From a virus, in the IMG/VR virus record IMGVR_UViG_3300035670_000247, positions 1 to 57,882 of that record: a DNA stretch of 57,882 bases, one strand, 5' to 3'. Positions 3,477 to 43,595 of the stretch are shown here, piece after piece (the stretch's first letter is position 1; every line of letters begins with the position of its first letter). The notes under the pieces are model-generated. The model did no database searches. It was not told where the DNA came from and saw only the letters and a list, made by a program, of their open reading frames with translations. A program made the translations under genes and the position numbers.

Positions 3477-3477
3477 A

Positions 3478-24817: not shown

Positions 24818-25024
24818 CTACTTGCTATTGCTGCGAGGCTCATTTGCAGCGTTGTAGTGGTCGTTCTTCTGGCACGCGAACACAACCAGGCTTATGTCTG
24901 GTCCGACATGCTTCAGCACCTTTCCCCTCGCACCGCTGAACGGCTTGAACCCGTCGCGGCAGTCGCAGCGGACGTAGCTGTCCAGCGGTGGAGGGGAGGG
25001 CATTTGCTCAACCTGCTGCGGCAT
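24818..25024 (-). CDS. Small protein, unknown (68 aa)
   Basis: ATG at 25024 overlaps the end of the RyR-domain gene in another frame, with AGGGA just upstream. It contains CDC and a further Cys (VRCDCRDGFKPFSGARG; VVFACQKNDHY). Possibly a small zinc or disulfide protein. Function unknown. Confidence 0.4.
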   Translation of the reverse strand: MPQQVEQMPSPPPLDSYVRCDCRDGFKPFSGARGKVLKHVGPDISLVVFACQKNDHYNAANEPRSNSK

Positions 25025-25805: not shown

Positions 25806-25807
25806 TT

Positions 25808-25897
25808 TTACTTGTCCTTTATTTGTTTTGTTGAAGCAGTGCCGTTCTGTGCATTGCGTGGTGGCAGGTCGTTTATTGAAAACCGTGGGTTGCTCAT
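25808..25897 (-). CDS. Possible micro-protein (29 aa)
   Basis: ATG at 25897 with GGAG eight bases upstream gives MSNPRFSINDLPPRNAQNGT and nine more residues, ending just before the RyR-domain gene start. It bridges the terminase small-subunit stop and the next ribosome site. Too short for a family call; the only support is the ribosome site and the lack of another gene. Confidence 0.3.
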   Translation of the reverse strand: MSNPRFSINDLPPRNAQNGTASTKQIKDK

Positions 25898-25900
25898 CTC

Positions 25901-26499: not shown

Positions 26500-26516
26500 C
26501 AGGGACATTTTTTTCA
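26500..26516 (-). promoter_or_regulatory. 17-bp late element, copy 4
   Basis: TGAAAAAAATGTCCCTG, whose TGA is the stop of the giant polyvalent protein. The terminase small subunit start follows within about 57 bases. Confidence 0.7.
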
Positions 26517-29500
26517 TTCTATTTCGCGCAGTCGCTCGTGCTTGGGCGCTCTGGCCATCTTGCTGAGCGTGGCCTTGAGCGTCGAACGGTTAATCAACGG
26601 GATCTCCCCGTTCGGATGTCGGGCATGGACTCTGATGTTGTATTCGTCGATCTGGTTGTACAGGTCAATCAGCCCGGCATGGTCGCGGCTGGATGCAGGC
26701 TGGAGCCAATACGCCCGGAACCGCGCCAGAATGTCGGAGCGCTTGTTGCTGTAGTTCGCCGCCACCTGGCGTTCATTCCACTGCCGTTCCCGGATGGCAG
26801 ACAGCCGCGCCGGGTTGAAGCCCAAACCGCGAATGATCGCGTCCAGTGCCGTCGGCCGCAGAGGCTCGTCGCCGTAGAACACCGGGGAATTGCTCCAGGT
26901 GGTTATGCCCTTGGTGTATTCCCGGTACGCCTTGACCGGCGCGGCGGCGAAGCGCGGCAGCAGTTGTTCCGCGCCCTTCAGCGTGTCGCCGCGCAGTATT
27001 GATTTGCCGCCGTAGTAGATGTCCTGCATCACGCCGCCGGGAGCTCCGAGAAATTCCATCCGGGTGCTCGGGATCACGTCCCGCAGCGAGATTCGCAGCG
27101 AGCCGGATATGTTGACGTTGGCGAACGAGAACACGCCCTGGCGGGCGAAGCGGCTTGCCGGTTCACCGAATTGCGCTTCCAGCCATTTGTAGAAATCCTC
27201 TTCCGGGTCGTCGCCGCCGGACACCATTTTGAGCAGCGCCAGAACCGCGCCCGACACCACCGACGCGCCAAGTCCGCCGAGAACCGCCGGACTGAACGCC
27301 ATGTACAGTGCCGCGCCGTACTGTTTTTCCTTCAATCCGAGTTCGGCCATGGTCTGAAGGTAGTTGTGCGTGAATGTCTTGAACATCCAGAACGAGCGCG
27401 GCAATGGGTGCCGCGCCCAGCTCGGCAGGTTGGCCTTGCCGTACACGCCGTGCGCACGGTCGCTTACCTTCTTCGCTTTTTCCATCGCCGCTTCGTGCGC
27501 GGCGTCTGTCCATTCGCCCTGATGTTTGGATTTGATTGCTTCATACGTCGCGGCAATGGTGGCCACACGGTTGATCTGCTCGGTCACGCTGAACGCCAGC
27601 ATCGACAAATCGACCGCCTTGGCCGTCGCCCGTCCCAGTTTGCCTTTCAACGCCGTGACCGCCTCCCGGTTGTACTGGGCTTCGTGCCAGCCCCGCGCCA
27701 CGATGTCGTGGATGGTCGAGGCATACGCCCCGGTGTATTCCTTCCCCTGCTTCATCGCCGCCATGTACTTGCCGTAGGCCGCGCCGGTTCTGCCGAGCAG
27801 CTTGAACGCTTGAAGCTCCGAGATTCCGGCATATCCCCGCATCGCGCCCGGAACGCTCGTCAGCAGCGCGGTCAGGTTGACCAGAGGCGAAGAGAAACTC
27901 GCCAGGTACTTCACCGAAGCCACGCCGCGCAGTATTCCGAACAGACGCTCCATCGCGTCCTCGTTCCGCAGCATGTATTGCAGCAGGTCCGTGCCCTGCT
28001 TCCAGGCAATCGGCTGTTGAGCCGAATCGATCCGGCGTTCGTTAACGAACTTGTGGTAGTCTTCCTTGGTCGGGTTCTCCGCCTGCTTCGCCCATTCGGA
28101 GTAGGGCACGTCCGTTCCCGTGATCGCCCGAGTCATGTTCCGCGCCAGCGTGTTCTTCGCCAGACCGCCCGCCGTTGACTTCCCGAGCAAGGTCACCGCC
28201 GTCTGCGGGTCCTCTTCGTACCCGGTCCACACGTTCTCGCCGGTTTCGTCGCCGCGCATGATCATGCTCGACCGGCTTCCGTGCTCCCGTACCACGTTGG
28301 CGATCTGCCGCGCCAGCGCCTGCGCGAACATCAGTTCGGTGTCCGGGTTCACCGCCTGGTCCTCCAGCAGCGCCCGCACCAGGTCGCTCTCGATGTTGGG
28401 CCGCCCCACGAAGTGCCAGGCTTTTCCGTGGCCGTCGTCCGCGTCGTAGAACCTGCCGCCTTGCTCCATGAAAATCGCCTGCATCCCCTTGCCGTAGGTT
28501 CCGGCGACAACAAAGTCGTACTGCCCGTCCGCGCTGGTCTCCCGGAAAGTGTCCTTGATCTTGAAGTCGGCCAGCGTGTATTGGTTGGGGTTGCGGTGAA
28601 TGCGCTCCAGGGTGTTGTTGATCAAGTCCTGCATGGCGATGTTCGGACCCGCGATGCTGTACACGTCCTCGCTCGGGGTCTGGCTCTTGGACGTGTTCAC
28701 CGTGTACCCCTGTTCCTCCAGCGTCGCCTGCCGTGCCGCCATGAACGGAGGGGTATCGAACATTTCAAGTATCGGGTTCGCGCCGTCCTTCGTGGCGCTC
28801 AGAACGAACCGGCCCGGCTTGCGGATACGCGGCATGTAGTAACCGCGCCTCTGTCCCATCGACGCGATGGCGGCCAGCAGGTCAACCTGGGCCACGCCGT
28901 CCTTCGTCTTCATCGCCACCGGCGGGAACTTCTCGCCGGTCTGGTCTTCGTACTCACTTGCTATCTGCCGCATCGACATCGACAGTTTGCCGTACACCGC
29001 ATCATTGATTGAGCGAATTGCATAAAGCGCGGCCACGGCCTGCTCGGAGAACCCTGCCGCTTGTGCGTCCCGGCCTTCGCGCAGATAAACCGCGTTCCAT
29101 GCTTCGGTGTCACTGGAGAAATCGCCGAGCTTTTCCTTGCTTACGCTGTATGCCGTGAACGTGCCGTCCCGGTTCTCCAGCACGCTGCCGCCGGTCTGGT
29201 TGCGGTCGTGCTTGACCAGGTATTCTTGCAGCCGTTTGTACTGCAGTGGACGCTGCTTGCGGAAATCATCGATCACCGCCAAGCGGCTCGTTGCGTCCGG
29301 CGCGTTGAAGATGTCGTTCTCGAACTGAAACCGCGTGTCGTGGTAGGCAATCGCATGGTCGTGCGCCCGTTTCAGCGCCGGGACCTTGTCCGCCGAGTGC
29401 GAAAGCGTCCGCAGCACCACGTCCACGCCGGACAAGTCCTGCCTGCCTGGCCGGGTCAGTCCGGCTTTCCACTTGCTTCCCGTCGCCCGCAGCAGATTCG

Positions 29501-32500
29501 CCGCCTGCTGTACATGCCTGGAGAACGCCTCGCCAGCCTCTTCAGCCGTGCGCGGCACCCTGTGCTGATACATCGGCAGCCCACGCAACGCCTCCCCGCG
29601 AATCGCCGGAGTGATCGGCACCGACCAGACTTCCGGGCCGGCGCTCTCATCCACCTGGCGGATTTCCCAGTTGGGCGACGCGGTCGGGTTGCCGGCCTGG
29701 CGGTTTACGATCTGCACGTCTCTTTCGGAATCGTACACGGCATCGCCGAAGTATTCCCCTGTGGTGGTATTGACTATGGCCCAGCCTGCCGGGAGGTCGC
29801 CTTCGAGTCGCGCCTTCTCGACTCCGGCGGTTTTGTCCAGCTTCTTGACAAACTTCCCGACCTCGTTCGGCAGAATCCGGTCGTAGAACCCCTTCATGCC
29901 CTCGCCGCCGACCTTCAGTCCGTCCTCGGAAAACGTCTGTCTGGATACGTGATTTTCACCGGGAGGCGGGATGTAACTGGCATCCATGTTCTCGCCGGCC
30001 GTGATTTTGGCGGCTAGTTCCTTGCCGACCGTTTCATCAAGCTTGCTGGCAGGAATTACCTTCTGCATGAATGCAGCTTGATTATGCCCGATGGCGGTGA
30101 CATAATACCCACCATCCTTCTGCATGAACGCATGAATCTCTTTCACCTGCTTGCTCAAGTCATACCGCTCCGCCTGCACCTCGCCCGGGGTCCACGCCAC
30201 CGCGTCGTATCCCTGTTCCGCCGCCATCCGCAGCACCCGCTTGAACGCCAGCATCGCCCAGGACTTCTTGAATGGGGCGCTGGGAACAATGCCATCTGGG
30301 CCGATGTGAAGTTTTCCGTTAAGTTCATCCAGCGCGGATTGAATTGCCTGTTCACGAATCGGCGAACGAAGACCATAGATTTCACCGTCTTTCATAACGG
30401 CGTAATTTTTCCCATCCGGCGAACTTTGCTCAATTACCTTATATTCGATTGGCAGTGCATTGAAAGGCTTGCGTGGAACATACCCCTGCTTCCGCCCCGC
30501 CTGGTGCCAGTCGCTCTGAATCTCCTCGACGAACAACACCCGGTTCCCGTCCGCATCCATCCGGTCGTTCAGGCGCATGTGGACGAGGACGTTCGGATCT
30601 TCGGACCAGTGGGAGGACTTGAACTGAGTCTGGTCGGCTGGAGGAAATTCTCTCTGATACTCGGCGACATGCTGCTGCCGATCCTGTATCCGATAGCCTT
30701 TGTCCCGCATCCAATCCGTAAACCGTGGGGCTGTGTCGGCGGACACCGGTAGCTTGATCAGCACCTCGCGGTAGTTCTCTTTTTCCCCTTCCATCTGCCA
30801 TTTAGCGTGTTTAACTGGCGAAGCAGTCGTAGGCGCTGAGATTGTTCCGCCAATTTCATCCGCTATGGCTCGTGCTTCATGTTCGCTTGTTGCATGTCGG
30901 ATGAGGTTGCCATCGGAATCCCAAACGCCCCACCTCTCACCCTTCACCACTTCCTCGATCCTCGGCCCGCCGTTCGCGATGAAGTCAAGCACCTGGTCCT
31001 TCGTCACTTTCCCGTCCACACCGTCCAGCCAGTCGAAGAACCCGAGGTCGTCGATCTCTTCCTGCTTCACGCTGGGGGCCTTGAGCAGCCGCGCCTTCAA
31101 CTGATCCGCCGGGATCGAGTTGAACTCCATACCCTCCACCGCATCCGCCAGCGGACTGAAAAAGCCCAGCATATCACGTCCGGTCCTGCTGTACCGGATG
31201 TCGTCGGACGCGGCATTAAACCGCTCACTTAGCGGGATGACGTTGCCCTGGTCATCACGGGTCACCGGATCGGCGGACTTGACCTGGGAGGGGTCATTTG
31301 CCATATACTCGGTAAAGTTTTCATTAAAATCATTGCCCTGTTTCTGCTGTACATCATTGCGAAGAAAGACCTCGTAAACTACAGGAGTCCCATTGGACAT
31401 TTTTGCCCATAGTTCAGCAAACCGCTTTGCTACTTTGCGGCTATCGGAAAAGTGAGCAAATCCAGTATGAGTAGAAGCGGTTTCAAAGGTTGTAATGCCG
31501 CTTTTGTCTGTTCCGTGATATGCCTTTATTACATACCCCGCCTTCTTCGCCGCTTCATCCACCATCTTCTGCGCAGTCTCCATGTCGCCGCTTTCCACCG
31601 CTTGCAGATATTCCGCATCCGCCTGCCCGCTATCAGAAGCAGCGCTCATGTCTAGCAGTGTGTTCAGCGCGTCGTTGAAGATGCGGGGATTGCGGATCGT
31701 GTCGCGCAGGGTCTTCGTCCGTTTGCCGTCCGCGAAGGTGTCGAACCCCGCATACAGTTCGGCGGCAATTTCTTCCGCGAGCAGGTGGTCGGAGTTTTGG
31801 AAATAGCCGGGGTCGGAAGATTCGATGAAGCGCCGGTAGGCTTGCGCCACCGGGTGGGTGATGTCGATCTGGTCGAGCATCGACACCGCCGGGGCTTCGG
31901 AGTCGAGCACGAACATGTGGAACAGTTCGTGGGCGAATGTCTCTTCCCAGGTCGCGTCGTTGGCGTTTCTTGGCGCGGCAGTGTTGACCAGGATGAACCC
32001 GTCCCAATGCGAACCGTGCCAGTTGTTGGACGGCGCGTGAACCGGGATCACCGCCGCTCCGACCGCTTCTCCTCGGCGGCGAATCTCGCTCCATTTCGGC
32101 GATGCCGCCGCCGCTTCGTCAACCGTCAGGCCAGCTATTTCCTGTCGAGTTCTTTCTTGCAGTCCGCTTGAAAGTCCTGAAAGCCTTTGCAGGGTTTCCA
32201 GGTGCCGTCGGCCTGCTTTTCCATTCTCGGAGTGAACCGCATTCCGCCCACCTTCACCGAAACCATCGGTGCGCGGTCGCGCCCGATCACTTTCTTGCTG
32301 CCGTTCGAGTTTTTCGTAGTTGACATTGGGGTCGCCTCCTGATTCGATTATCTTACTGATGAGTTCTTGCGCTGTCAAGTCCGGGTCCGCATATCCGTAT
32401 TCCAGAGCTTCCTGCCGAAGCTGGTCCATGGTGGTAATCTTGTGCTGCCGATCAATCTCCGCCTCCCGGATCGCGTCCAGCTTCTCGCCGTTGCGTTCAA

Positions 32501-35500
32501 GAAGGGCGATGCGGTCGAGGACGGATTGATCCCATATCACATATTTTGCGCCCGTGGCCCCCTGGCTTACGCCGCCGTGGGTGTTGCCGGGGATGCCTGC
32601 GCGAGCGAGAAATTCTGAGGCTTCTTTATCGGATGGCCAAAACACATCACCGCCAGCCTTCTCATTGAAATGTTCAGCTATAACTGCACTTAAATTGTTA
32701 TAGAAAGTGCCTCCCTTGCCAAGAGCGTAGCCAAGTCCTTCGTTATCGTTTAGGTCGTAAAGGGACGTGGAGCCAATGGTTAAATCTTTAATGTCTATGT
32801 TTTCACGCTCTGCTTGTCTCCTAATTTTGGCAGCATTTTCAGGAGACACATTCCGGTCCCAATCCAGCAGCTTTGGCATCACGTCGTCGGGGATGTCGAG
32901 TTTGTAGAGGGATTGCCCGCTTATTGCATGGGCTTTATCGTATTCAACTTTGTCGATCAAATTGCCGTTTTTGTAGAACGCCCCCTTTCCGCTGCGATTC
33001 GTCATTGAGGAATACGTTGCCCCATCGTGTTCAAATTGATGGTAGCCTTTGCGAGCGTTTGCATTGATGTACGTTTTCGCTACATCATCCCTCTCCGCAA
33101 AGTATATTCCATGCCCGTATGACTGATTCCCTTCCCCCGTCCCGATCATGTCCAGGCGTGGCCTGCCATGCGGGAAACCCGGCTCCGGCTGCCAGATATG
33201 CGGAGTGCCGTGGTTAACGTGCTGCCGACGGATGTCGTCGCTCAGTTCATTGAACCGTTCGGACAGCGGGATCACGTTGCCCGCGTCGTCGTAGGTCACG
33301 GGATCGGTGGAAATTATCGAAGATGCTGGAAGCGGCCTTTCATGGCGTTGTGAATCCGTTGTTTGTCTTTCCGCAATGAGTCGATCTCTTGCGGCTTCAA
33401 CAGACCGGTTTCGGAGTAGCCACCAGGCTTCGTTTTCGGAGAGAGCGGAGGGAGAGTTTCCGATTTTGAATTCTTTGATGAGTTGGTAGAGTTTAACATG
33501 GTCGAACTTCTCCAGAAGTTTTGACATTGTGTTTTTTGTCAATTCCAATGTAGTGCTGCCGTGCGATGCTGTCAAACAACAAGCATCAACCACTATGCCG
33601 CCGGATTGCTCGATGTATTGACGAAGAGCAGCAAGAGTACCGCCTGCTGTAACATGATCGTCAACAATAATGTATTCCCGATTTTGTTGAACTGTTCCGG
33701 CAAAAGTCGGGCGGTTGGCCAACCGATAGGCCGCGCCTTTGCCTCTGTGAAAAACTTTGGAAGCCTGCACGATTTCGCGATCAACCTCCAAATTGCCGAT
33801 CTGAGCGATGGCTTCTGCGAACGTCTGAGGAATTGCGTTTTTACCTGACGCTTCTTCGGCATGAACAGCGCACACGATTGCGTTCGGGTGGCGAGATGCA
33901 AGTTTTTTTATCTTGTCCGGTTTAATAGTGTTTTCAATGAGCCTGGCTGCCGCGTCTGCGTTTCCGGCTTTCGCTTTGTCAAAGTCTTCTTGATAATTGC
34001 TTGTCACGTAACGACGGGTCGTGTGGATTTGTATTTTTTCAACTCGTCCACGCGGTGCGAGGTCCGCAAATCTGGGATTGTCGGTGGCGTTCATCATCCG
34101 GTTCACGATCTTGGCCTGCAACCGTTCCGCCGTTGCGGAGTCCGCAAACGCCTTGCCCAGGTCGTTCCGCCCGGACAGATAGGCCATGGCGATTTCCTCC
34201 GCCACCGCACGGTTTGCCGCGTCGATCACCCGCTGCTGATTTGCGGTGTCCGCAATGTCCGCGTCGGTCAACCCCAGCCGGTTCATCGCGTCCCGATAAT
34301 ACCGCCGCTGGATGTCCCGGCTCTCGAACAAGCCACGGGCCACCTCGCGAAACGCCGGGCTGTTCTGATCAACCGCATCGATCAGCCGCGTCACGTCCCG
34401 GTCGCCGCGTTCGGCCAACACATGCCCCACCTCATGCACCAGGTAGTTCTCCGCCGCCGGAGTGTCGGCAATGAACACCGAGTCACCTTGGGCGAACCCG
34501 CCCTGGGCGGCAACCGGCAGAGTGACGGGCACGGCAGTCGCGCCGTTCCGCCGGGCGATGGAATCTAGTCCTCGGAAAGCCGCCGAAGATGCCCATCGCC
34601 CATCGAGTCGAACACGTGCAAGGTTGCCTTCGGTATCTCCTTGTTTTGCCTGCGCAAGAGCCTTCTGCCATGTCTGTCGGGCTTGCCGACGCTGTTGAGC
34701 GGAAGGTGCATCCGTGTTCCGTCCGGCGTATTCACGTGCAACTGTTTCAGAGATGTCTTGTTCATCGAGTCCTCCTTGTCTTGGTGTCAAATCCGCGTAC
34801 ATCATGACTCCGCGTTCCGTCTCGCGGGTCTTGATCGTGTCGAACAGCTTGTCGAATGCCTTGTTGATCGCCTGGCGTTCTTCGCCCTCCGGGTACGGTT
34901 TCAGCAAACCTTCCGGGTAGATGGGGACGAAGACCGTTCCATGGGCCTTGTAGACAAGGAAGTCGTTCTTCGCGCTGGCCGTCGTCAGCTTGTCTTCAAC
35001 ATACGCCGCGAACGCCCGTGCCGCCATTTCCGGGTTGCTCGACCAGTATTTATCCGTCCGCGCCTGATCCGCCGCCATGGCCTGCCGCCGGAACTCGGTC
35101 GGAACGTTCTTTTCCTTGACGACTTCCTTGCGACCTTCCTCCATGGTCTCGATGCGGTCCTGATAGCGGCTCATCACGCCACGCAGTCGGATGAACGTGC
35201 TGTCGCTGCTTTCGCTGAAGCCGGTCCTGCCGCGAACGGCCTTGTAGATCGCGCTCATCTCTTCGAGCACTTTGTTCGTGTGCCGTCCGGCGAAGTACTT
35301 GTTTTTTCGCCGCTTCGTCGCCGCGTCGTCCTCCATCCACTCCGTGTCCAGCGATTCACCGTTCAGCAGCGTCTGCGCCAGCTCGTCGAATCGCGCCAAC
35401 TGCTCCGGGGTCGCCGGGGCCGTGAACCGCTTGCCGTAGCGTTGTTCGGTCGCCAGGTTGTTGCGGATTCCCTGCAATTCCTCATCCAGTCGGTCTCTCG

Positions 35501-38500
35501 CCTTCCCCAGCCACTTTTCGGCCTTCTCCGTGTCCTCTACATAGGTTTCCGCCTTTGAAAGCATCGTCGCCACGACGTTATCGAACGCATCCCGAACTTC
35601 TGGCCGCACTTGGCTCGCCCCGCCCCGCCTCAGCTCTTCGGTCGCCATGCTCGATTTCTTGGGGTCGTATGTCATATCCCCGCGTTGGTTCGCGGTCTTT
35701 TCGCTGGTGGCGATTCCGTCCTGCCGGGCGAAGTAGTGATCCACCGCGTGCCACCATTCGTGCGCCAGATGCCCGGCCCCGGACATCTTGGTCAGGTTGA
35801 TCACGGCGTAGTCGCGCTCGTAGTGCGCCGCCGCCCCCTGCAAGCCATGCCCCCGCGCCCCGAACGCAATCGCCAGCTCGCCGTCCAGCGACATCGCCCG
35901 AGGCGGCACGTTCAGCAGCTCCGCCAAGTCCAGGAACGAGTCGAAGGCATGGTTCATCACTTCCTGCCGTTCCTCGGTCTTGCTCACCCAGTTCCCGAAC
36001 TCCACTCCACGGAACCCGAACGTCTCGTCGAACGCCTCGACCGTCGCATCGCCGGACCGCCGCACCTTGCCTTGACGGTCGACCGTCGTCGGCTTGAGCA
36101 GCACTTCCTCGCCGAAGCTCAGTCGAGCGTCCAGTATCTCGCCCGCGTGGAGCGCCATGTGTTTCATGGCATCTTCGCGGCTGTCGAACATCTCCGGGAC
36201 CGCCTGCACCATTCGCTTGTTGCTCAGTCTGCGGTAGATCGTGAACTTTCCGTCGCTTGCGCCGTAGACGCTGTGGTTCTGCGCCACCGCCGCCACCGGC
36301 AGAATCTCCTCCGCCTCTTCCCGAGTATCGAACTCCTTGCGCGAAATCTGCAACGGTTCGTTCGACAGGTACGAGTGGCTTTTCTTGCGCAGGTCGAGCA
36401 GCACCCACTTGCCGTTCCTCGGGCTGTCTTCCATTTCCCCAGTCGCCCGGTTCCGGCGCGTTTCGTTCTGGATTTGCTGAACCACGTATCGCGCCCGCCA
36501 GCCCGTGGGCTTGTCTTCGTCGGTCTGGCCTTTGCGCCGGACCTGCCGCCCGCCAGCCGTGTCTTTCCGCGCTCCGCCGATCTTCTCCCCGAAGTCCTCG
36601 ATCACGCCGGGCACCTGCCGCGCCGCCGCGCTGGCATTGGCATTCGCTTTCGATTGATTGTTCGCCGCCACATCGAACAGGTTCTGGTCTTCACCCAGAA
36701 GATTACCCTGGATGCCCTTTGTATTGTCCACGATCCGGGCGCGTTGCATTTCCCGAATCTTCTTTTGCTGCGCTTCCTTTCGCGCCTTCTCCGCCGCCTC
36801 CGCCCGTTCCCGCTTCACATCGTCCTCGGTATACGACTCCAGCTCCAGCGTTTCGCTGTCCGTCTTCGTCTCCGCCTCTGCCGCCTGGCTTTCCGGTGCA
36901 ATGGCCGCCACGATGTCGTCGGCCATCTCGTCGAGCTGCTGTTCGGAGTTCATGTCGCTGCGGTATTCTTCGTTTCCCGGCCAGTTCCTCGCGCCCAGGT
37001 ACCACGACTTCAGGTAGGGTCGCACCTTCTCGCCCAGGTCGTTGATCATCGCCTTCGCATACGCCGCGAACTTGCGGGTTCCCGCCTTCACATACAGCGA
37101 AGTCAACTCGATCCCGGCGGTCAGAATCTCCGGGTCGATCCCCGCCGTCGCTTGCCCGCCCAGCTTCCGCCGTAGCTTCTTCTGTAGTTCCGCCCCCCGA
37201 GCCTGATCTTCTTCCGATAGATTACTGAGAAACCCGGACTTCTCGGCGGGGGTGTCCTGGCTTTCTTCCGTCTGGGTTGTTGACTGCTGATATTGTTCTT
37301 CGAAAAGGCGATACGTGTAACCTTTTTTATCTGTGGCAACGTAGCGAATGTTGCTATGCAAAAATCCACCGTCTGCAAGCTCAATCTTGCCCGTGATCGT
37401 CAATGGCGTATTTGCAGGTATGGTTTGGTCTGACTTGACAGGGTTCCCGCGCTGGTTTTGGGTGTTTCGGGCTTGGACAAAAATGTCTTGTGTTGTTATG
37501 GTTTCTTTTGGAAATGTTTCGTTTGCCAGACCTTGATCGGGGGTCCGATGTTGGCTTAAATATTCGTCCGCCCAGGGTTCTCCTAAATAATCCGATACCA
37601 CTTCAGCTTCAACGCTTTCTCCGGCGGCGATTGCCTGTTGGACGCTTTGCTTGTGCAATATTCCGGCATCGTCTTCCGCCTTTCTAAGGGCATCTTGATT
37701 GTCCCTCCATTGATCTCCTATGTCTTGTCCGTTTTGGGTGGCGCTATACAGCTCATCGCCGCGACGGGTAAGCGTTTGCACGTCAGCATTGGTGCGTAAA
37801 AACGAGTCAAGCGTCATCTCCCACGGCTCTTTGGCCTGCGCCCGCCCGTCCGGCTTTTGTAGTTCCGGGTAGTCGGCGGCTGGGTTGGATGATTGCGATG
37901 GGTTCGGCACAGCAACGATTGATTCTTGATATGCCTTTTTCAACTTGTCGTAATCAATTAGTTGCCTACCATTTTCGTCTGCTTCTGAAAGCGCTCCAAT
38001 TTTGCTTAACGGGTCCTGCCATTTCCATGAAACCGCACCGTTGTATTTTTCTGAAACGCCTTCCAAAAAGTCAGACAGCTTGTCTCTGTTGTATGTGTTT
38101 TCGTCAGGAAGCAACTTTTTAACCCATGCTCCAGACGGCCTTGAGTCTGCTTTTGTTTCAAGATTTTGCTTGTCATTTTCTATTTGATTTTTTGTTTTAC
38201 CCTTGTTTTCAATCGTAGTTACATCTTGCGGGTTTTCTGTTGATGCGACTTTAAGGGACTTACGAAGTTGTCCTTCTTTATCAAGAGACCTTCTAAGCAT
38301 CTCTTCGTGCTTTCTCATCGCTGAAATGCTATTTCCTCTTGCGCCTGTTTCCTGAAGTTGCTTTGTCGTTTTTTTTGCGTTTTCTAACTTGCTAGAGATG
38401 ATTTCTTTTTCAGAAACTTTCCTTGCAACTTTAACAATATACCTGTTTTCGCTGCCGTCTTTGTCAATGGCAATGTATTCGGCAGACCGAAACGTCGTTC

Positions 38501-41500
38501 CGACATTACTTGCAATTCCATCATATTCCTTAAAGTTTTCAATCGTATCCCATGATATGTTGGCTAAGTCAGATATTTTCAGCGCGGCGGCGGCTGGGTG
38601 CGCCTTCTTTTGCAAGTCCGGGTAGTCGGCAAGCACCTCGGCGGGGACGGGCTTGCCTTCGGAGAGTGCTCTTTCGATTATTCTCTTGTGCATGGCTTCG
38701 CCCTTAAAGCCATAGAGGTCTACGGTATCTCCCTTTTTATACGTAGGCCGCTCTATGTTTAAGCGCTTTGCCAGTTCTGCCCCGGCTCCAGAATTGAGGC
38801 GGTCAGCTTCTACTTGGTCAAGGACAACCCTCCATAAATTCGTAGGCGCATATTCGGTGGGAGCATTGGTTTTCTTTTTCGTCATCTCCCACGGCTCTTT
38901 GGCCTGCGCCCGCCCGTCCGGATTCTCTTCCGCCTCCGGTCCTGTTGCGGCATCGGTATCCACCGCCAGCTCTTTCCCGTCGATGATCGCCGTGATCTGC
39001 TCCAGCTCCCACTGCATCCGGCCGTCGATCTCCCGATCAAGCGCCAGGTCAAGCTGCTGCCAGTAGTTCACCCGCTCCTGAAGCGCCGCCCGCTTCGCCT
39101 TCTGCTCGTCGTTCCAGGGCGTGGGGTTTCCGGCCTTGAACTGGTCGCGCTCAGTCTCCGCTCTTTCCAGGCTCTGGTCCACAATGCTCCGGGCATAGCC
39201 TTCGCCGGTCGTGATCTGGGCCGCTGAATACCGCGCCCGGTAGTCGCGCTGTGCGGTCTTCGCAAACTCGTCAACCGTCGGCTTCACGTCCGCATCGGGA
39301 TTCACCGCTTGGAAGAATTGCTGCATATCCCCGATCGTATCGAACTGGAACCCTGGCACAGCTCCGCCGGATGATGCCTTGGAATATCGTCCGCCGTTCG
39401 CTTTGGCCTGGGCAAGCAGTTTATCGAACACATCACGCGGAACCACTCTGTTCAACCGCACTACCAGCGCTTCACGCTTCCGCTCCGGGTTCCAGGCGCG
39501 GTACGCCGTCAGTTCCGGCGCGGCTGGAGTAGTTTCGGGCTGGGGTTCCGGTTCCGTTGCAGGTTTCGGCGGCTGGGTCGTCGTTTTGGGTTCACGCTCG
39601 GCAAGCGCGGCAATGGCCAGTTTTACGCCATATTCCGCGTCGCTTCTTACGCGCTCTATGGGCATGGTAAGATAGGGATTCGCTTGATCTGCCGGCCTTG
39701 TTGCCGGTTTTGCTGCTTCCGGTTCAACCGTTTGATTTGTTTTGATACTCGGCGTTCCATCGCCGGATTGACCTGTCTCATCGAGAACTGGAGTAGTCCG
39801 TCCACTGTTATCGGTACCATCCTGTCGCCTGAATTGTTTTTCTCGTTCTGCATTGCTTATTGCTCCTGTCAGTATATCAATCAGTGTTTCTTCGGGCACT
39901 TCGTTTTGGCTGAACAACATTGGTGTGCGCTCGTCGATGCTCTCGACAGACCGCGTATATGTGCCCAGCAAATTTTTAACGTCCTCGATCGCTTTGGACT
40001 CCAGCAACGCCAGCGTCAGGCGCTGCGCCGCGGTATCGTCTGCGCCGAACAGGCCATACTGCCGGAAATACGCATGTTCATTGGCGGCAGTGCCATTGTT
40101 CACGGACTGGCGGGCATGTACCAATTCCTTAATGGCTCGACCCAGCAGCGGGATTATGTCAAATTTAGCATGAGTTTTGGAAATTCGCAAGAGCCCGGGG
40201 GCGGCGGCTACTGCCCCTTTCGCCACGCGCTTGATCTGCGGGTCTTCATTGTTTTCCAGGATGAACGTCACCAGCTCGCGCTGGGCACCGCTGTGTTTCA
40301 ACAAAGCCGCCAGGGCTGCCCTGTTCATGCGTCGTTGAAATGATTCCACCGGAGTGCCATCCGTCGTGGTCATAGCCGCGCCGGCATCAGTCAACCGCAG
40401 AAACGCTCTCCAGAAGGCAGCGTTCTGCATAGCACCCATGTCGCCGTTGACGGGGACATCCAGCAATTTGGCCAGATTGTTCTCCAGGATTACGTCGGCG
40501 TCGAACCATGCCTGCTCAGTTTCAGACATTCCCTGCACAACAGGCCGATTTGACTCGTCCGCAAATTTTTTATCGTCACCGACATTGTCACCGTCATAAT
40601 CTTCGACAACCCTGACCAGCACAGGCTGCTCGACACTGCGCAACAATGCGCTGGGGATTCGTTTCTGTGCTGCAAATGCCTCCAACCATTCCATATACGC
40701 GAGGAACTGCGCACTTTCTGAATTGCTCAAAACCTTGGAGAGCAACCAGCGGCGGCCATATCCGGCGATGATCTCACCGCGTTTGTTGATGATGATTCCG
40801 CCCTGGTCACTCATTGCGCTATCCCCGAGCGCTTCCGGGAAAAAGGTGCGATACATCTCTTCGATTCGTTCTGCACTGGCCTGTCTGTTGCGGTCGCGCT
40901 GCTGCAATCCATCGCCGCCGGTTAAACTGCCCAGATCAACAACTGCCCAATAGCCTTTGGCTACCGTGTGCTTGCGTATATCAGCCGTCTTTGCCCGCCA
41001 CTGCCTTTCCGGTCGTTTCGACTGCTGCCGATTGATGAACGGGTTGACCTTGACTTCATTTTCACGCCCGGACACTCCTTCAGGTGCTTGTGTCTCCTGC
41101 CTGCCTGGCACGTTCTGCACCGGCATCGATACATCTGCCGCACTACGTTTCCGCTGTGCGGTTGAATCGTCGTCCTGTGGTCGTTGCTCGTCCTGTAGGT
41201 ACTGCTCATCGGCTCTCTCCTGCGCTTGTTGCGCTCTCTTCTGTCCGCGCAACGCCTGGATCACTCGCCGCCGCAGCTGCGATCTGTTGCCCGTCGGGTC
41301 CAGCCCCATTTGCTCCGCTTCCTGGCGAAGCTCTTCCACCGACATGTTGTTGATCCGCCGCTTCACGTCACCTATGGTCACGCCAGCCGTCTTCCGCGCT
41401 GTCTTCAGCAGCTCCATCGTCAATTCGCCAGCCGTCTCGAAATCGTCCTGCTGCAATGCCTCGTCGATCTTCTGCCGCGTCTCCGCCGTATCTTTGCGCC

Positions 41501-43595
41501 ACTGCTGGTCCTGCAATGCCCCGGACTGCTCCAGCAATCCGAACACCTCGTCCGCCAGGGCATCGAACGCCGCTGCCGTCGCCATTCTGGCCTCTGCGCT
41601 TTCACGTCGGGAAACCGCAGTGCTCAACAGCACGTTCTGCCGATGCTCGATTTTTTCTCGTACCATGCGGGCAAACGCCCGGCGCTCAGACCGGTTCCAG
41701 CGGTGCCCCGTGCCCAATAGTTCAGTAAGCTGCTTCCGGCTCGGAGTCTCCAGACGCGCCAGGCGCTCGGCGGCGCCGGGGTTGCTATCCAGAAACGCTA
41801 CTGCATCTGTAGCCGTCGGCGCATTGGATCGTGGTTGATTCTGGCCGCGCATGAAATTGTCTATGTCATCTGCATTGTCCTCGTCCGTCCCCAGCGCATC
41901 CTCGCCGGATTCCGGCGGAATAAGCCGTTCAGCATAATTCGCGAGTTCAACATCTGTCATCAGTCCTTCGTTGTACAAGTCGCGGATTTGATCCAGCTCG
42001 CTTCGTGTCCCCGGCACCTGGTCCACCGGTATTCCCAGGCGTTCGGCAATTTCCAGCTTCTGGTCGTCGCCCAGTTCTTCTGCCGGCCGACCGCGCCGAC
42101 CGATAATAACAAACGCTAAATCCACTGTTTCAGCCGGAAGTTTTTCCCCGGATTCACTTTCCGGCGTCTCTCCCATCATCAACGCCATATCGCGCTTTTC
42201 CATTGCATCGTTCAGCGCCTTCAGCTCATTACGCTGTTCGTCCGTCATAGCCGGGCGACCTGTCACCTTGTCTGCAGCATACCCAAGAACCGCCGCGCCG
42301 CCGGGGATCAGCATAAAGCCGCCCAGTTCCGTGATGATCTGCTCCGGCGTCAGGTCGCGCCGCGCCGCTGCCCACAGCCTGGACAGCACGTTCTTCGGGT
42401 TTTCCGATCCGAAATCCTCATTGCCCGTCAGCGCATTAAGGAAACTCGCCGCCCGCTCCTCCGTCCATTCCTCGAACAGATTACCACGGGCTGCCCGTCT
42501 CAGCAGCTGTTTCCCAAACGTTTCGATTGACCCTGTTCGGTCCACCGTCTTCCATGCGTTGTAAACCGCCTTGCGAAAAAGCGCCGCGCCACTCTTTGCC
42601 GCATTCACTGCGCTCGCGCCGCCAGGCAGCTTGGATACGGCTGCGCCCGCGCCGCGCATCAGATAGCCACCCATCAACTCGCTGGACCGCTCAAACGCTT
42701 GTCCCATAAATGCCCGCAACGCGCTTTCAGCTTCGCTTTCGGCGGCATTGCCCAGCGTCAGCTTCCCGTCATTGTCAGATTCGAGGCGACTCTGCCATTG
42801 CCGTCGAACATAATCCTCATACGTCCGGTGTGGCGTCACCGCCGCCAGCACCGTGCCTTTCAGCGCTAGATTTGTTCCCAGCGTCACGCCTTTCTTGATC
42901 TTGGGGGCGTTGGTCAGAATCTTTGCCAGTCCCGGGGCCAGCTTTTTCGTCGCGGCATCCGCCAGCCGTCTGCCGGCAACCATTTCGCCGATGTACGGCA
43001 TCGAGTCCAGCCCGATGTCAACCATGTTAGCCAGCATCGACTTGCTTCGGCTTGCCTGTTCTTTGTCGGCCTGTAATTGTTTGTGAATAAATTCAAACTG
43101 ATCAGGCGTGGCCGTGCCGGCCGCATACGCATCCATCGCCCGCTTCTTGTATCCTGCTTTTATCCCCTTTTGGCCGGCGTTGGCCGCCAGCGCGGCATAG
43201 CCGATTGTTTTGCGCAGGGGGTTATTTGCGGCCGTCAGTGTGCTGGCCGCGCCCAGTACGGTTTCGGTTTTATCCCGGCGGAGCAGCGCTTCGCCCAGGC
43301 CGATATTGCCCTGGCGACGAGGATCATGCGTGTCTGCAAACGCATCCTCGCGTCTGTCGGCCCATAATACCGCAGCGTCGAGCAGATCAGCAAGCACAGG
43401 CTCTGGCCTTGTGTCAGCCTTGAACACGGCATGGTCTTTGCCCAGTGCCGCGCCACGTTTGATCGCCGAATCCAGAATGTATTGATCGTGCCGCTGCCTG
43501 AGAATTTTGGCCTGGAGCGTTTTGACGTCGAGAGTTCCGTCTATGGATGGGACACCGGTGGCATCGTTACTGCGGGAGTCGCGTAGAGAGGGCAT
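26514..43595 (-). CDS. Giant polyvalent virion protein (5,693 aa)
   Basis: One uninterrupted 17-kb gene, ATG at 43595 with GAGGATG upstream. Domains seen, approximate residues: N-terminal Ala-rich helical region (1-450); SAP (750-785, MSVEELRQEAEQMGLDPTGN); DdrB/ParB-like (855-1250, GEIIAGYGRR); an EPWEMT linker used twice; LPD5-like zincin with HEWWH at 2612-2616; zincin HEVGH at 3054-3058; phosphoribosyltransferase-like (3190-3400, IVDDHVTAGGT); ADP-ribosyltransferase-like (3461-3692, HGTPHIW ... YGHGIYF); zincin HELFH at 3889-3893; second ADP-ribosyltransferase-like (4025-4127, AYHGTDKS); EEIQSDW domain (about 4360); and a C-terminal LPD38-like region (5190-5690). Polyvalent proteins of this kind are injected with phage DNA to counter host defences. 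Here it probably travels in the virion. Confidence 0.9.
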   Translation of the reverse strand: MPSLRDSRSNDATGVPSIDGTLDVKTLQAKILRQRHDQYILDSAIKRGAALGKDHAVFKADTRPEPVLADLLDAAVLWADRREDAFADTHDPRRQGNIGLGEALLRRDKTETVLGAASTLTAANNPLRKTIGYAALAANAGQKGIKAGYKKRAMDAYAAGTATPDQFEFIHKQLQADKEQASRSKSMLANMVDIGLDSMPYIGEMVAGRRLADAATKKLAPGLAKILTNAPKIKKGVTLGTNLALKGTVLAAVTPHRTYEDYVRRQWQSRLESDNDGKLTLGNAAESEAESALRAFMGQAFERSSELMGGYLMRGAGAAVSKLPGGASAVNAAKSGAALFRKAVYNAWKTVDRTGSIETFGKQLLRRAARGNLFEEWTEERAASFLNALTGNEDFGSENPKNVLSRLWAAARRDLTPEQIITELGGFMLIPGGAAVLGYAADKVTGRPAMTDEQRNELKALNDAMEKRDMALMMGETPESESGEKLPAETVDLAFVIIGRRGRPAEELGDDQKLEIAERLGIPVDQVPGTRSELDQIRDLYNEGLMTDVELANYAERLIPPESGEDALGTDEDNADDIDNFMRGQNQPRSNAPTATDAVAFLDSNPGAAERLARLETPSRKQLTELLGTGHRWNRSERRAFARMVREKIEHRQNVLLSTAVSRRESAEARMATAAAFDALADEVFGLLEQSGALQDQQWRKDTAETRQKIDEALQQDDFETAGELTMELLKTARKTAGVTIGDVKRRINNMSVEELRQEAEQMGLDPTGNRSQLRRRVIQALRGQKRAQQAQERADEQYLQDEQRPQDDDSTAQRKRSAADVSMPVQNVPGRQETQAPEGVSGRENEVKVNPFINRQQSKRPERQWRAKTADIRKHTVAKGYWAVVDLGSLTGGDGLQQRDRNRQASAERIEEMYRTFFPEALGDSAMSDQGGIIINKRGEIIAGYGRRWLLSKVLSNSESAQFLAYMEWLEAFAAQKRIPSALLRSVEQPVLVRVVEDYDGDNVGDDKKFADESNRPVVQGMSETEQAWFDADVILENNLAKLLDVPVNGDMGAMQNAAFWRAFLRLTDAGAAMTTTDGTPVESFQRRMNRAALAALLKHSGAQRELVTFILENNEDPQIKRVAKGAVAAAPGLLRISKTHAKFDIIPLLGRAIKELVHARQSVNNGTAANEHAYFRQYGLFGADDTAAQRLTLALLESKAIEDVKNLLGTYTRSVESIDERTPMLFSQNEVPEETLIDILTGAISNAEREKQFRRQDGTDNSGRTTPVLDETGQSGDGTPSIKTNQTVEPEAAKPATRPADQANPYLTMPIERVRSDAEYGVKLAIAALAEREPKTTTQPPKPATEPEPQPETTPAAPELTAYRAWNPERKREALVVRLNRVVPRDVFDKLLAQAKANGGRYSKASSGGAVPGFQFDTIGDMQQFFQAVNPDADVKPTVDEFAKTAQRDYRARYSAAQITTGEGYARSIVDQSLERAETERDQFKAGNPTPWNDEQKAKRAALQERVNYWQQLDLALDREIDGRMQWELEQITAIIDGKELAVDTDAATGPEAEENPDGRAQAKEPWEMTKKKTNAPTEYAPTNLWRVVLDQVEADRLNSGAGAELAKRLNIERPTYKKGDTVDLYGFKGEAMHKRIIERALSEGKPVPAEVLADYPDLQKKAHPAAAALKISDLANISWDTIENFKEYDGIASNVGTTFRSAEYIAIDKDGSENRYIVKVARKVSEKEIISSKLENAKKTTKQLQETGARGNSISAMRKHEEMLRRSLDKEGQLRKSLKVASTENPQDVTTIENKGKTKNQIENDKQNLETKADSRPSGAWVKKLLPDENTYNRDKLSDFLEGVSEKYNGAVSWKWQDPLSKIGALSEADENGRQLIDYDKLKKAYQESIVAVPNPSQSSNPAADYPELQKPDGRAQAKEPWEMTLDSFLRTNADVQTLTRRGDELYSATQNGQDIGDQWRDNQDALRKAEDDAGILHKQSVQQAIAAGESVEAEVVSDYLGEPWADEYLSQHRTPDQGLANETFPKETITTQDIFVQARNTQNQRGNPVKSDQTIPANTPLTITGKIELADGGFLHSNIRYVATDKKGYTYRLFEEQYQQSTTQTEESQDTPAEKSGFLSNLSEEDQARGAELQKKLRRKLGGQATAGIDPEILTAGIELTSLYVKAGTRKFAAYAKAMINDLGEKVRPYLKSWYLGARNWPGNEEYRSDMNSEQQLDEMADDIVAAIAPESQAAEAETKTDSETLELESYTEDDVKRERAEAAEKARKEAQQKKIREMQRARIVDNTKGIQGNLLGEDQNLFDVAANNQSKANANASAAARQVPGVIEDFGEKIGGARKDTAGGRQVRRKGQTDEDKPTGWRARYVVQQIQNETRRNRATGEMEDSPRNGKWVLLDLRKKSHSYLSNEPLQISRKEFDTREEAEEILPVAAVAQNHSVYGASDGKFTIYRRLSNKRMVQAVPEMFDSREDAMKHMALHAGEILDARLSFGEEVLLKPTTVDRQGKVRRSGDATVEAFDETFGFRGVEFGNWVSKTEERQEVMNHAFDSFLDLAELLNVPPRAMSLDGELAIAFGARGHGLQGAAAHYERDYAVINLTKMSGAGHLAHEWWHAVDHYFARQDGIATSEKTANQRGDMTYDPKKSSMATEELRRGGASQVRPEVRDAFDNVVATMLSKAETYVEDTEKAEKWLGKARDRLDEELQGIRNNLATEQRYGKRFTAPATPEQLARFDELAQTLLNGESLDTEWMEDDAATKRRKNKYFAGRHTNKVLEEMSAIYKAVRGRTGFSESSDSTFIRLRGVMSRYQDRIETMEEGRKEVVKEKNVPTEFRRQAMAADQARTDKYWSSNPEMAARAFAAYVEDKLTTASAKNDFLVYKAHGTVFVPIYPEGLLKPYPEGEERQAINKAFDKLFDTIKTRETERGVMMYADLTPRQGGLDEQDISETVAREYAGRNTDAPSAQQRRQARQTWQKALAQAKQGDTEGNLARVRLDGRWASSAAFRGLDSIARRNGATAVPVTLPVAAQGGFAQGDSVFIADTPAAENYLVHEVGHVLAERGDRDVTRLIDAVDQNSPAFREVARGLFESRDIQRRYYRDAMNRLGLTDADIADTANQQRVIDAANRAVAEEIAMAYLSGRNDLGKAFADSATAERLQAKIVNRMMNATDNPRFADLAPRGRVEKIQIHTTRRYVTSNYQEDFDKAKAGNADAAARLIENTIKPDKIKKLASRHPNAIVCAVHAEEASGKNAIPQTFAEAIAQIGNLEVDREIVQASKVFHRGKGAAYRLANRPTFAGTVQQNREYIIVDDHVTAGGTLAALRQYIEQSGGIVVDACCLTASHGSTTLELTKNTMSKLLEKFDHVKLYQLIKEFKIGNSPSALSENEAWWLLRNRSVEAARDRLIAERQTTDSQRHERPLPASSIISTDPVTYDDAGNVIPLSERFNELSDDIRRQHVNHGTPHIWQPEPGFPHGRPRLDMIGTGEGNQSYGHGIYFAERDDVAKTYINANARKGYHQFEHDGATYSSMTNRSGKGAFYKNGNLIDKVEYDKAHAISGQSLYKLDIPDDVMPKLLDWDRNVSPENAAKIRRQAERENIDIKDLTIGSTSLYDLNDNEGLGYALGKGGTFYNNLSAVIAEHFNEKAGGDVFWPSDKEASEFLARAGIPGNTHGGVSQGATGAKYVIWDQSVLDRIALLERNGEKLDAIREAEIDRQHKITTMDQLRQEALEYGYADPDLTAQELISKIIESGGDPNVNYEKLERQQESDRARPRTDGFGEGGRNAVHSENGKAGRRHLETLQRLSGLSSGLQERTRQEIAGLTVDEAAAASPKWSEIRRRGEAVGAAVIPVHAPSNNWHGSHWDGFILVNTAAPRNANDATWEETFAHELFHMFVLDSEAPAVSMLDQIDITHPVAQAYRRFIESSDPGYFQNSDHLLAEEIAAELYAGFDTFADGKRTKTLRDTIRNPRIFNDALNTLLDMSAASDSGQADAEYLQAVESGDMETAQKMVDEAAKKAGYVIKAYHGTDKSGITTFETASTHTGFAHFSDSRKVAKRFAELWAKMSNGTPVVYEVFLRNDVQQKQGNDFNENFTEYMANDPSQVKSADPVTRDDQGNVIPLSERFNAASDDIRYSRTGRDMLGFFSPLADAVEGMEFNSIPADQLKARLLKAPSVKQEEIDDLGFFDWLDGVDGKVTKDQVLDFIANGGPRIEEVVKGERWGVWDSDGNLIRHATSEHEARAIADEIGGTISAPTTASPVKHAKWQMEGEKENYREVLIKLPVSADTAPRFTDWMRDKGYRIQDRQQHVAEYQREFPPADQTQFKSSHWSEDPNVLVHMRLNDRMDADGNRVLFVEEIQSDWHQAGRKQGYVPRKPFNALPIEYKVIEQSSPDGKNYAVMKDGEIYGLRSPIREQAIQSALDELNGKLHIGPDGIVPSAPFKKSWAMLAFKRVLRMAAEQGYDAVAWTPGEVQAERYDLSKQVKEIHAFMQKDGGYYVTAIGHNQAAFMQKVIPASKLDETVGKELAAKITAGENMDASYIPPPGENHVSRQTFSEDGLKVGGEGMKGFYDRILPNEVGKFVKKLDKTAGVEKARLEGDLPAGWAIVNTTTGEYFGDAVYDSERDVQIVNRQAGNPTASPNWEIRQVDESAGPEVWSVPITPAIRGEALRGLPMYQHRVPRTAEEAGEAFSRHVQQAANLLRATGSKWKAGLTRPGRQDLSGVDVVLRTLSHSADKVPALKRAHDHAIAYHDTRFQFENDIFNAPDATSRLAVIDDFRKQRPLQYKRLQEYLVKHDRNQTGGSVLENRDGTFTAYSVSKEKLGDFSSDTEAWNAVYLREGRDAQAAGFSEQAVAALYAIRSINDAVYGKLSMSMRQIASEYEDQTGEKFPPVAMKTKDGVAQVDLLAAIASMGQRRGYYMPRIRKPGRFVLSATKDGANPILEMFDTPPFMAARQATLEEQGYTVNTSKSQTPSEDVYSIAGPNIAMQDLINNTLERIHRNPNQYTLADFKIKDTFRETSADGQYDFVVAGTYGKGMQAIFMEQGGRFYDADDGHGKAWHFVGRPNIESDLVRALLEDQAVNPDTELMFAQALARQIANVVREHGSRSSMIMRGDETGENVWTGYEEDPQTAVTLLGKSTAGGLAKNTLARNMTRAITGTDVPYSEWAKQAENPTKEDYHKFVNERRIDSAQQPIAWKQGTDLLQYMLRNEDAMERLFGILRGVASVKYLASFSSPLVNLTALLTSVPGAMRGYAGISELQAFKLLGRTGAAYGKYMAAMKQGKEYTGAYASTIHDIVARGWHEAQYNREAVTALKGKLGRATAKAVDLSMLAFSVTEQINRVATIAATYEAIKSKHQGEWTDAAHEAAMEKAKKVSDRAHGVYGKANLPSWARHPLPRSFWMFKTFTHNYLQTMAELGLKEKQYGAALYMAFSPAVLGGLGASVVSGAVLALLKMVSGGDDPEEDFYKWLEAQFGEPASRFARQGVFSFANVNISGSLRISLRDVIPSTRMEFLGAPGGVMQDIYYGGKSILRGDTLKGAEQLLPRFAAAPVKAYREYTKGITTWSNSPVFYGDEPLRPTALDAIIRGLGFNPARLSAIRERQWNERQVAANYSNKRSDILARFRAYWLQPASSRDHAGLIDLYNQIDEYNIRVHARHPNGEIPLINRSTLKATLSKMARAPKHERLREIE
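37812..37853. repeat. 42-bp perfect direct repeat, copy A
   Basis: Identical to 38880-38921. Encodes the end of the linker (S)DGRAQAKEPWEMT in the giant gene. The two copies are 1,068 bp apart, which is 356 codons, so recombination between them would delete or add an in-frame module. Confidence 0.9.
38880..38921. repeat. 42-bp perfect direct repeat, copy B
   Basis: Second copy of the repeat at 37812. The 1-kb segment in between is conspicuously A+T-rich compared with the rest of the giant gene and encodes a Lys/Glu-rich domain without recognised motif (SEKEIISSKLENAKKTTKQL region). Confidence 0.9.

What the first reader, a model, noticed from the sequence alone, without database searches (positions are those of the whole stretch)
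26514..43595. A 5,693-residue polyvalent protein with three zincins, two ADP-ribosyltransferase-like and one phosphoribosyltransferase-like domain
One gene takes about 30% of the genome. HEWWH (2612), HEVGH (3054) and HELFH (3889) are three separate zincin motifs; HGTPHIW/YGHGIYF and AYHGTDKS mark two ADP-ribosyltransferase-like domains; IVDDHVTAGGT marks a PRPP-binding fold; GEIIAGYGRR a ParB-like nuclease or CTPase relative. Polyvalent proteins (as defined by Iyer and colleagues) combine such effectors for injection. Its location with ejection-type genes and its length suggest a virion-carried multi-effector, comparable in role to the N4 virion polymerase. Central AT-rich parts hold unrecognised domains.
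Basis: partly seen in the sequence, partly recalled or inferred. Interest (0 to 1): 0.75.

Follow-up and report, generated by a model that had tools for sequence, protein, structure and literature searches.

The report
Mosaic giant protein of a podovirus
A bacterial virus spends almost a third of its genome on one 5,693-residue protein of the known 'polyvalent' type, probably carried in the particle and injected into the host; its gene is visibly stitched together from modules of different origin, and two of its supposed toxin-like enzymes look damaged.

Summary
In detail: one uninterrupted 5,693-codon ORF (minus strand, 26514-43595, 29.5% of a 57.9-kb podovirus-like genome), with every quoted motif in place. 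The class call, 'polyvalent protein' (Iyer et al. 2017), is right and not new: proteins with 1-5 zincins, up to 12 ADP-ribosyltransferases (ARTs), phosphoribosyltransferases (PRTases) and ParB domains are described, and a 4,515-residue podoviral counterpart was found in virions. Zincin 1 is well supported, and its probable third zinc ligand lies in the separately named LPD1. Zincins 2 and 3 rest on motif and weak profile signal. The PRTase fold is confirmed. Both ARTs keep His/Tyr motifs but have lost the Asp-bearing element of most relatives, so may be inactive. Missed: SAP, the C-terminal PLxRFG domain, two integrases. No RNA polymerase, methylase or helicase was detected. New here: the gene is a mosaic with sharp seams. 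Scaffold parts (aa 2107-2934 and ~4560-5690) share one codon signature; the PRTase and other inserts do not. Blind change-point analysis cuts at aa 2934/2937 (the homology breakpoint in the nearest relative) and 3425/3426 (between the PRTase and an ART-tail peptide left without its ART).

The parts
26514..43595 (-). giant gene, 5,693 aa
41247..41354 (-). SAP DNA-binding domain, aa 748-783
   Evidence: Pfam PF02037 E 2.7e-8, above cut-off
40605..40949 (-). ddrB-like ParB domain, aa 883-997 (GEIIAGYGRR at 940)
   Evidence: Pfam PF18763 E 9.4e-15; PHROG 5143 extends to aa 1139
38880..38921 (-). first copy of a 42-nt exact direct repeat encoding PDGRAQAKEPWEMT (aa 1559-1572)
   Evidence: hinge AKEPWEMT recurs in 29 IMG/VR stretches
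37812..37853 (-). second copy of the 42-nt repeat (aa 1915-1928), 1,068 nt apart, in frame
37911..38435 (-). segment aa 1721-1895 of foreign codon composition (fourfold-site GC 0.19), lying between the two repeat copies
   Evidence: blind change-point analysis
34794..37277 (-). scaffold part 1, aa 2107-2934: DarB-associated small domain, pre-zincin, zincin 1 and LPD1
   Evidence: fourfold-site GC 0.863; 54% identity to Desulfospira L145 over 2321-2934
35748..35762 (-). zincin 1 HEWWH, aa 2612-2616
   Evidence: NCBIfam CLCA_X; H, E, H and Asp three residues on invariant in 16 sequences
34824..35072 (-). Pfam LPD1, aa 2842-2924; carries invariant Glu2856, the likely third zinc ligand of zincin 1
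   Evidence: Pfam PF18796 E 2.6e-23; alignment A1
34059..34562 (-). putative zincin 2, aa 3012-3179 (HEVGH 3054, AEEIA downstream)
   Evidence: motif; weak profile signal above shuffled-flank controls; fold not resolved
33321..34001 (-). PRTase domain, aa 3199-3425 (IVDDHVTAGGT at 3310)
   Evidence: 31-39% identity to locus homologues and about 37% to plasmid PRTases; Foldseek ComF E 6.8e-6; ShosT profile 3.2e-4
33222..33320 (-). cap 1, aa 3426-3458: ART-tail peptide (DPVTYDDAGNVIPLSERFNELSDDIR) with no ART before it
   Evidence: composition seam at aa 3425/3426
32451..33221 (-). ART1, aa 3459-3715; His and Tyr motifs kept, YLD element of relatives lost
32286..32450 (-). confident helical domain after ART1, SAP/Rho-N-like in appearance (aa 3716-3770)
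   Evidence: pLDDT about 80-91 over aa 3720-3769; no Pfam match
31641..32198 (-). putative zincin 3, aa 3800-3985 (HELFH 3889, LAEEIAAE downstream)
   Evidence: motif; weak profile signal; low-confidence model
31272..31640 (-). ART2, aa 3986-4108 with its N-terminal helical lead; compact, no GYDG-type Asp
   Evidence: Pfam ART-PolyVal E 8e-7 over profile 3-59 of 140 only, just below cut-off; BFVD ART-PolyVal E 4e-10
31182..31271 (-). cap 2, aa 4109-4138: the same tail peptide in its usual place after an ART
29676..31163 (-). conserved uncharacterised domains aa 4145-4640, with invariant H4329, R4341, E4358, Q4360, S4361 in the EEIQSDWHQ region
   Evidence: 12-sequence alignment; PHROG 7348
26526..29534 (-). 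scaffold part 2, aa 4688-5690: conserved C-terminus; aa 5218-5659 is the PLxRFG 'tail-700' domain with one hydrophobic stretch at 5429-5455
   Evidence: NCBIfam NF032893 E 4.8e-31, above cut-off; 28-37% identity to L145

Best explanation
The gene encodes a phage polyvalent protein, most likely packaged in the head of a temperate podovirus-like phage and injected with the DNA. It is built on a scaffold, zincin 1-LPD1 plus the ~1,000-residue C-terminus with the PLxRFG domain, into and before which cargo modules from several sources have been inserted, some at hinge peptides. Inferred working: the C-terminus serves packaging and passage into the cell; zincin 1, and zincins 2/3 if real, cut the chain into working pieces; SAP and ParB parts act on or at DNA; the PRTase acts on a nucleotide or PRPP; the two ART modules are probably catalytically impaired and may bind rather than modify. 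Shown here: architecture, homology, compositional seams, loss of the ART Asp element. Inferred: packaging, injection, cleavage, targets.
For: Family matches to polyvalent-specific domains. PRTase fold. Co-directional late-gene setting next to the small terminase, with large terminase, portal and major capsid on the same strand. A giant counterpart, JC1 gp69 (4,515 aa, 22% of its genome), was found in CsCl-purified virions with 51 unique peptides (PMC9144972). Scaffold: L145 (Desulfospira) matches at 2321-2934 and 4688-5690 with 722 residues between; L217 has 244; this protein has about 1,753. Fourfold-site GC 0.86 in both scaffold parts against 0.455 (PRTase, P 2e-19) and 0.536 (ART2, P 4e-8). 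Blind segmentation cuts at 2934/2937 and 3425/3426, and finds no segment boundary in 20 shuffles. 42-nt exact repeat at a hinge. Two integrases.
Against: No virion proteomics for this phage, host unknown. The closest relative by packaging genes (L001, terminases and portal 64-86% identical) does not have the giant gene next to its small terminase, so the neighbourhood is not fixed. Fourfold-site composition can vary for reasons other than origin. The C-terminal seam is blurred (change point at 4560 or 4445, homology start at 4688 or 4718). Zincins 2 and 3 unproven.
Confidence: 0.75

Rival explanations
1. A fully active multi-effector weapon: three working proteases and two working ADP-ribosyltransferases, acting on host proteins.
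For: All HExxH motifs and the ART His/Tyr motifs are present; Iyer et al. describe proteins with up to five zincins and twelve ARTs (PMC5512222).
Against: ART1 lacks the YLD element present in four of five relatives, the fifth having YLN; ART2 matches only the first 59 of 140 profile positions and has no GYDG-type Asp, which a strict pattern finds in 45 of 63 relatives; zincins 2 and 3 have no relatives or confident model.
Confidence: 0.15
2. A mainly structural or ejection protein (head-tail conduit or internal core) whose enzyme-like domains are carried-along or decayed, without a role as injected effectors.
For: The C-terminal PLxRFG domain is shared with several relatives; both ARTs look decayed; the gene lies among late genes.
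Against: PRTase, zincin 1 and ParB motifs are intact; PRTase and zincin 1 residues are conserved across many phages, which decay does not explain.
Confidence: 0.1
3. A DarB-like antirestriction protein, as such relatives are commonly annotated, protecting incoming DNA by a methylase-helicase module.
For: PHROG 10089 'DarB-like' matches aa ~1739-2277; Bcep22-like DarB proteins share aa ~2140-2229.
Against: No methylase or SWI2/SNF2 helicase domain matched anywhere in the protein; the shared part is one small accessory domain.
Confidence: 0.03

Closest known systems
Phage polyvalent proteins (Iyer et al. 2017, PMC5512222)
   Same: Many disparate domains in one chain: zincins, ARTs of the HYD2 kind, PRTase, DdrB-ParB, LPDs; late-gene setting; phage-type set
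   Different: Scaffold-plus-cargo layout traced here to seams of one or a few codons; ARTs apparently degenerate
JC1 gp69 / Bcep22 gp75 giant DarB-like proteins
   Same: Podoviral giants (gp69 4,515 aa), found in virions (JC1); relatives of this group share the small domain at aa ~2140-2229
   Different: A Bcep22-like homologue (phage DC1) is annotated as lytic transglycosylase/helicase/methylase, none of which is detected here
PLxRFG 'tail-700' proteins (NCBIfam NF032893); nearest architecture L145 in Desulfospira joergensenii
   Same: Zincin 1-LPD1 followed by the same ~1,000-residue C-terminus
   Different: Only 722 residues between the two parts against about 1,753 here; no PRTase or ART match there
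Pseudoalteromonas phage vB_PunP_Y3 ORF30/31
   Same: Nearest isolate by capsid (42%); 3,421-residue DdrB-ParB protein with zincin 1-LPD1, followed by a separate ART gene
   Different: No match to this protein's C-terminus or cargo; different gene order
Phage P1 DdrB/DarB
   Same: DdrB-type ParB plus zincin; virion-borne antirestriction set
   Different: No DarB methylase-helicase here
Phage N4 virion RNA polymerase
   Same: Very large protein expected to be injected
   Different: No RNA polymerase domain found

Membership tests
Polyvalent protein | Several biochemically disparate domains in one polypeptide, drawn from the polyvalent set | tested here: met
   ddrB-ParB, SAP, LPD1, PRTase, ART-PolyVal, CLCA_X, PLxRFG
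Polyvalent protein | Encoded by a phage near late genes | tested here: met
   29 bp upstream of small terminase, same strand as terminase, portal and capsid
Polyvalent protein | Carried in the virion and injected | not testable with these tools
   precedent only: JC1 gp69 by mass spectrometry (PMC9144972)
Zincin (domain 1) | HExxH plus downstream Glu and family match | tested here: met
   CLCA_X 2.5e-42; His/Glu/His, Asp and Glu2856 invariant in 16 sequences; fold itself not modelled
Zincin (domains 2 and 3) | HExxH plus zincin fold | tested here: inconclusive
   motif present; best profile score just above 30 shuffled-flank controls in each case; model confidence low in these regions
HYD2-type ART (ART1) | His in strand 1 and Tyr in strand 2 | tested here: met
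   HGTPHIW, YGHGIYF aligned with five relatives
HYD2-type ART (ART1) | Asp in strand 5, taken here as the YLD element | tested here: not met
   GIPGNTH---GGVSQ where relatives read GIxGxrYLDxxSR
ART-PolyVal (ART2) | Curated Pfam score and full-length domain | tested here: not met
   30.3 bits against a cut-off of 31.2, profile 3-59 of 140; fold search still finds ART-PolyVal proteins first
PRTase | PRPP motif and fold | tested here: met
   IVDDHVTAGGT; ComF E 6.8e-6, APRTs E 2e-4 and weaker, nearly all listed hits at probability 1.00
PLxRFG tail-700 protein | NF032893 above curated cut-off | tested here: met
   107.9 bits against 100
DarB-like antirestriction protein | Methylase and SWI2/SNF2 helicase | tested here: not met
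   no such match in Pfam or NCBIfam
N4 virion RNA polymerase | Single-subunit RNA polymerase domain | tested here: not met
   no match in Pfam, PHROGs or, for the two stretches searched (aa 1101-2300 and 2201-3400), PDB sequences

The most novel reading that the evidence does not exclude
Phage polyvalent proteins are assembled, and perhaps cut, at a small set of conserved hinge peptides: the ART tail 'QIKSADPVTYDDxGNVIPLSERFNxxxxDIRYS' and the pair 'AKEPWEMT ... GKPVPxEVLxDYPDL'. The first is held constant at protein level across about 90 distinct phage sequences, with all six Ser, Leu and Arg codons in use, and persists in this protein where its ART is gone. The second shows exact 27-42-nt repeats wherever two copies sit in one gene (4 of 4). 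Hinges would thus be module joints for recombination, and possibly the unknown cleavage sites of the embedded zincins.
Probability: 0.25. Interest if true: 0.7.

Novelty: new member of a known kind. Interest (0 to 1): 0.47.

Why it matters
Polyvalent proteins are widespread, among the largest phage proteins, and almost untested. This one gives a readable record of how they grow: a constant scaffold and foreign modules with seams resolved to a few codons, some on recurring hinge peptides. It also warns that motif counting overstates the arsenal, since two of the six advertised zincin, ART and PRTase domains appear to lack a catalytic element and two more are unproven. The hinge peptides make an open question directly testable: where, if anywhere, the embedded metallopeptidases cut.

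Tried and rejected
Relatives of zincins 2 and 3: pattern scans of viral and genome collections, tblastn against phages at E up to 1 and samples of two phyla gave nothing; the few hits were chance, two of them to an elongation-factor-like protein (my reading). PDB sequence search with the zincin-1 and ART2 profiles gave only chance hits, and the PDB fold search of the zincin3-ART2 model gave nothing significant. First ART alignment A2 laid ART1 relatives onto ART2 and was not used for modelling. A reversed-sequence control for HExxH matches was biased and was replaced by shuffled flanks that keep HExxH. Simple binary segmentation found only one change point; optimal partitioning was used instead. 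DNA-level copying as the reason for the conserved ART tail was rejected: all synonymous codons occur. Peptidase_M78 absent. Relatives by C-terminus in viral contigs: none found.

Full report
What is there. The window is a phage record of 57,882 bases. Both ends lie in the same 12-bp repeat and a single 323-codon frame with (TDGT)n reads across the junction, so the record is effectively a complete circle. On the minus strand, 26514-43595 holds one 5,693-codon frame starting at ATG. All motifs named in the finding are at the stated residues. Three HExxH in a protein of this composition are not expected by chance (0.13 expected). Downstream, 29 bp away, is a small terminase, then a RyR/gp49_66 fusion, large terminase, portal and major capsid, all on the same strand; an internal-virion-protein homologue lies further on. 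By capsid the nearest isolate is Pseudoalteromonas phage vB_PunP_Y3 (42%). Two tyrosine integrases suggest a temperate phage.

Domain by domain. SAP (748-783) and ddrB-ParB (883-997) are above Pfam cut-offs. Region 1141-2117 has no Pfam or NCBIfam match; PHROG hits around it are to accessory parts of DarB-like and 'endolysin' giants, by my reading not to catalytic domains. Zincin 1 belongs with NCBIfam CLCA_X (2.5e-42; below that model's whole-protein cut-off). In a 16-sequence alignment HExxH, the Asp three residues on and Glu2856 are invariant. Glu2856 falls inside Pfam LPD1 (2842-2924), so LPD1 is best read as the second half of this zincin; that is inference from conservation, not a structure. 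Zincins 2 and 3 have the motif and a plausible downstream Glu, but no relatives and no confident model. Their best profile scores against other HExxH segments exceed all 30 shuffled-flank controls only narrowly: 11.4 against 9.5 bits, and 6.5 against 6.1.

The PRTase (about 3199-3425) is secure: relatives in phages (31-39%) and plasmids (about 37%), and a fold match to H. pylori ComF at E 6.8e-6 and to many APRTs. A weak profile match to the defence toxin ShosT (3.2e-4) and a ShosT structure among the fold hits make a nucleotide-targeting role worth testing.

The two ARTs. ART1 (3459-3715) aligns with L107, L108, Methanosarcina virus MetMV, L225 and L160. Four relatives read GIxGxrYLD, the fifth YLN; this protein reads GIPGNTH with three residues missing. 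ART2 (3986-4108) is a short version: it matches profile positions 3-59 of 140, just under the curated cut-off, and has no GYDG-type Asp, which a strict pattern finds in 45 of 63 relatives. Fold search in viral models still puts ART-PolyVal proteins first (E 4e-10). Iyer et al. give the active site of this clade as His, Tyr and a strand-5 Asp (PMC5512222). I take the missing Asp to be that residue; by comparison of the two families this is likely but not proved.

The ART tail. The peptide QIKSADPVTYDDxGNVIPLSERFNxxxxDIRYS was found through its core in 103 IMG/VR stretches, mostly after ARTs. Flanking positions outside the search pattern are also strongly conserved, while codons vary freely, Ser using both TCN and AGY; the constraint is on the peptide. 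In this protein it occurs twice: after ART2, and directly after the PRTase with no ART before it (3426-3458). The other PRTases examined lack it. The first copy therefore looks like the remnant of a lost ART module. Its core string does not occur in the paper library.

Scaffold and cargo. The nearest protein in layout, L145 from Desulfospira joergensenii, matches aa 2321-2934 at 54% and 4688-5690 at 28-37%, with 722 residues between; L217 has 244; here there are about 1,753. Some relatives carry other HExxH segments in that bay. The C-terminus holds the PLxRFG domain (NCBIfam, above cut-off). At fourfold-degenerate sites both scaffold parts have GC about 0.86, the PRTase 0.455, ART2 0.536 and aa 1141-2117 0.598. 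Optimal partitioning without domain knowledge cuts at 1714/1721, 1895/1896, 2106/2107, 2934/2937, 3010/3012, 3179/3180, 3425/3426 and 4559/4560; shuffled sites give no boundary in 20 of 20 runs. The cut at 2934/2937 equals the homology breakpoint in L145, and that at 3425/3426 the start of the ART tail. The most foreign piece (1721-1895, GC 0.19) lies between two exact 42-nt copies of a hinge encoding PDGRAQAKEPWEMT, 1,068 nt apart. AKEPWEMT recurs in 29 other stretches, often followed by GKPVPxEVLxDYPDL; three of those genes have two copies, each with a 27-33-nt exact repeat. With four genes and uncontrolled codon bias this is suggestive only.

Comparison with the known. Iyer et al. defined polyvalent proteins and reported one to five zincins, up to twelve ARTs, PRTases with ComFC-like features, DdrB-ParB, and the idea that zincins free the domains (PMC5512222). 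JC1 gp69 shows that such giants are in podoviral virions (PMC9144972). This protein is a new member of that kind. By the tests run it is not a DarB (no methylase or helicase) and not an N4-type virion RNA polymerase.

Limits. Two structure jobs only, both with shallow alignments; ART1 and zincin 1 were not modelled. No host, no proteomics. No library of predicted cellular structures was available.

Noticed in passing
window 2421-3476 (+) and 55635-56615 (-): Two different tyrosine integrases (Pfam 6.8e-18 and 6.8e-16) in one phage genome.
   Followed up: no
window 1-127 and 57747-57882: Genome ends sit in a coding 12-bp repeat; the frame across the junction encodes about eleven TDGT repeats in the middle of a 323-codon frame that looks like a replication-type protein.
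   Followed up: partly
window 25008-25904 (-): RyR domain fused to Phage_gp49_66 between small and large terminase genes; no gene of that size lies there in the close relative L001.
   Followed up: partly
window 8953-9705 (-): Sigma-70 region 2 protein (7e-11) beside a 933-residue unassigned, fibre-sized protein.
   Followed up: no
window 51210-51911 (-): DUF5131/radical-SAM-like protein (1.3e-7) that also matches two PADLOC candidate defence models.
   Followed up: no
window 44161-44441: Three 96-bp tandem repeats in the gene just upstream of the giant gene, giving a 32-residue coiled-coil-like repeat.
   Followed up: no
giant protein aa 4321-4640 (window 29676-30635): Uncharacterised domain with invariant H4329, R4341, E4358, Q4360, S4361 in 12 phage and prophage-like proteins, enzyme-like in appearance.
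   Followed up: partly
L105 and L106: Other IMG/VR phages with stop-to-stop frames of 4,684 and at least 5,213 residues carrying PRTase-type or other shared segments: giants of this size are not unique.
   Followed up: partly
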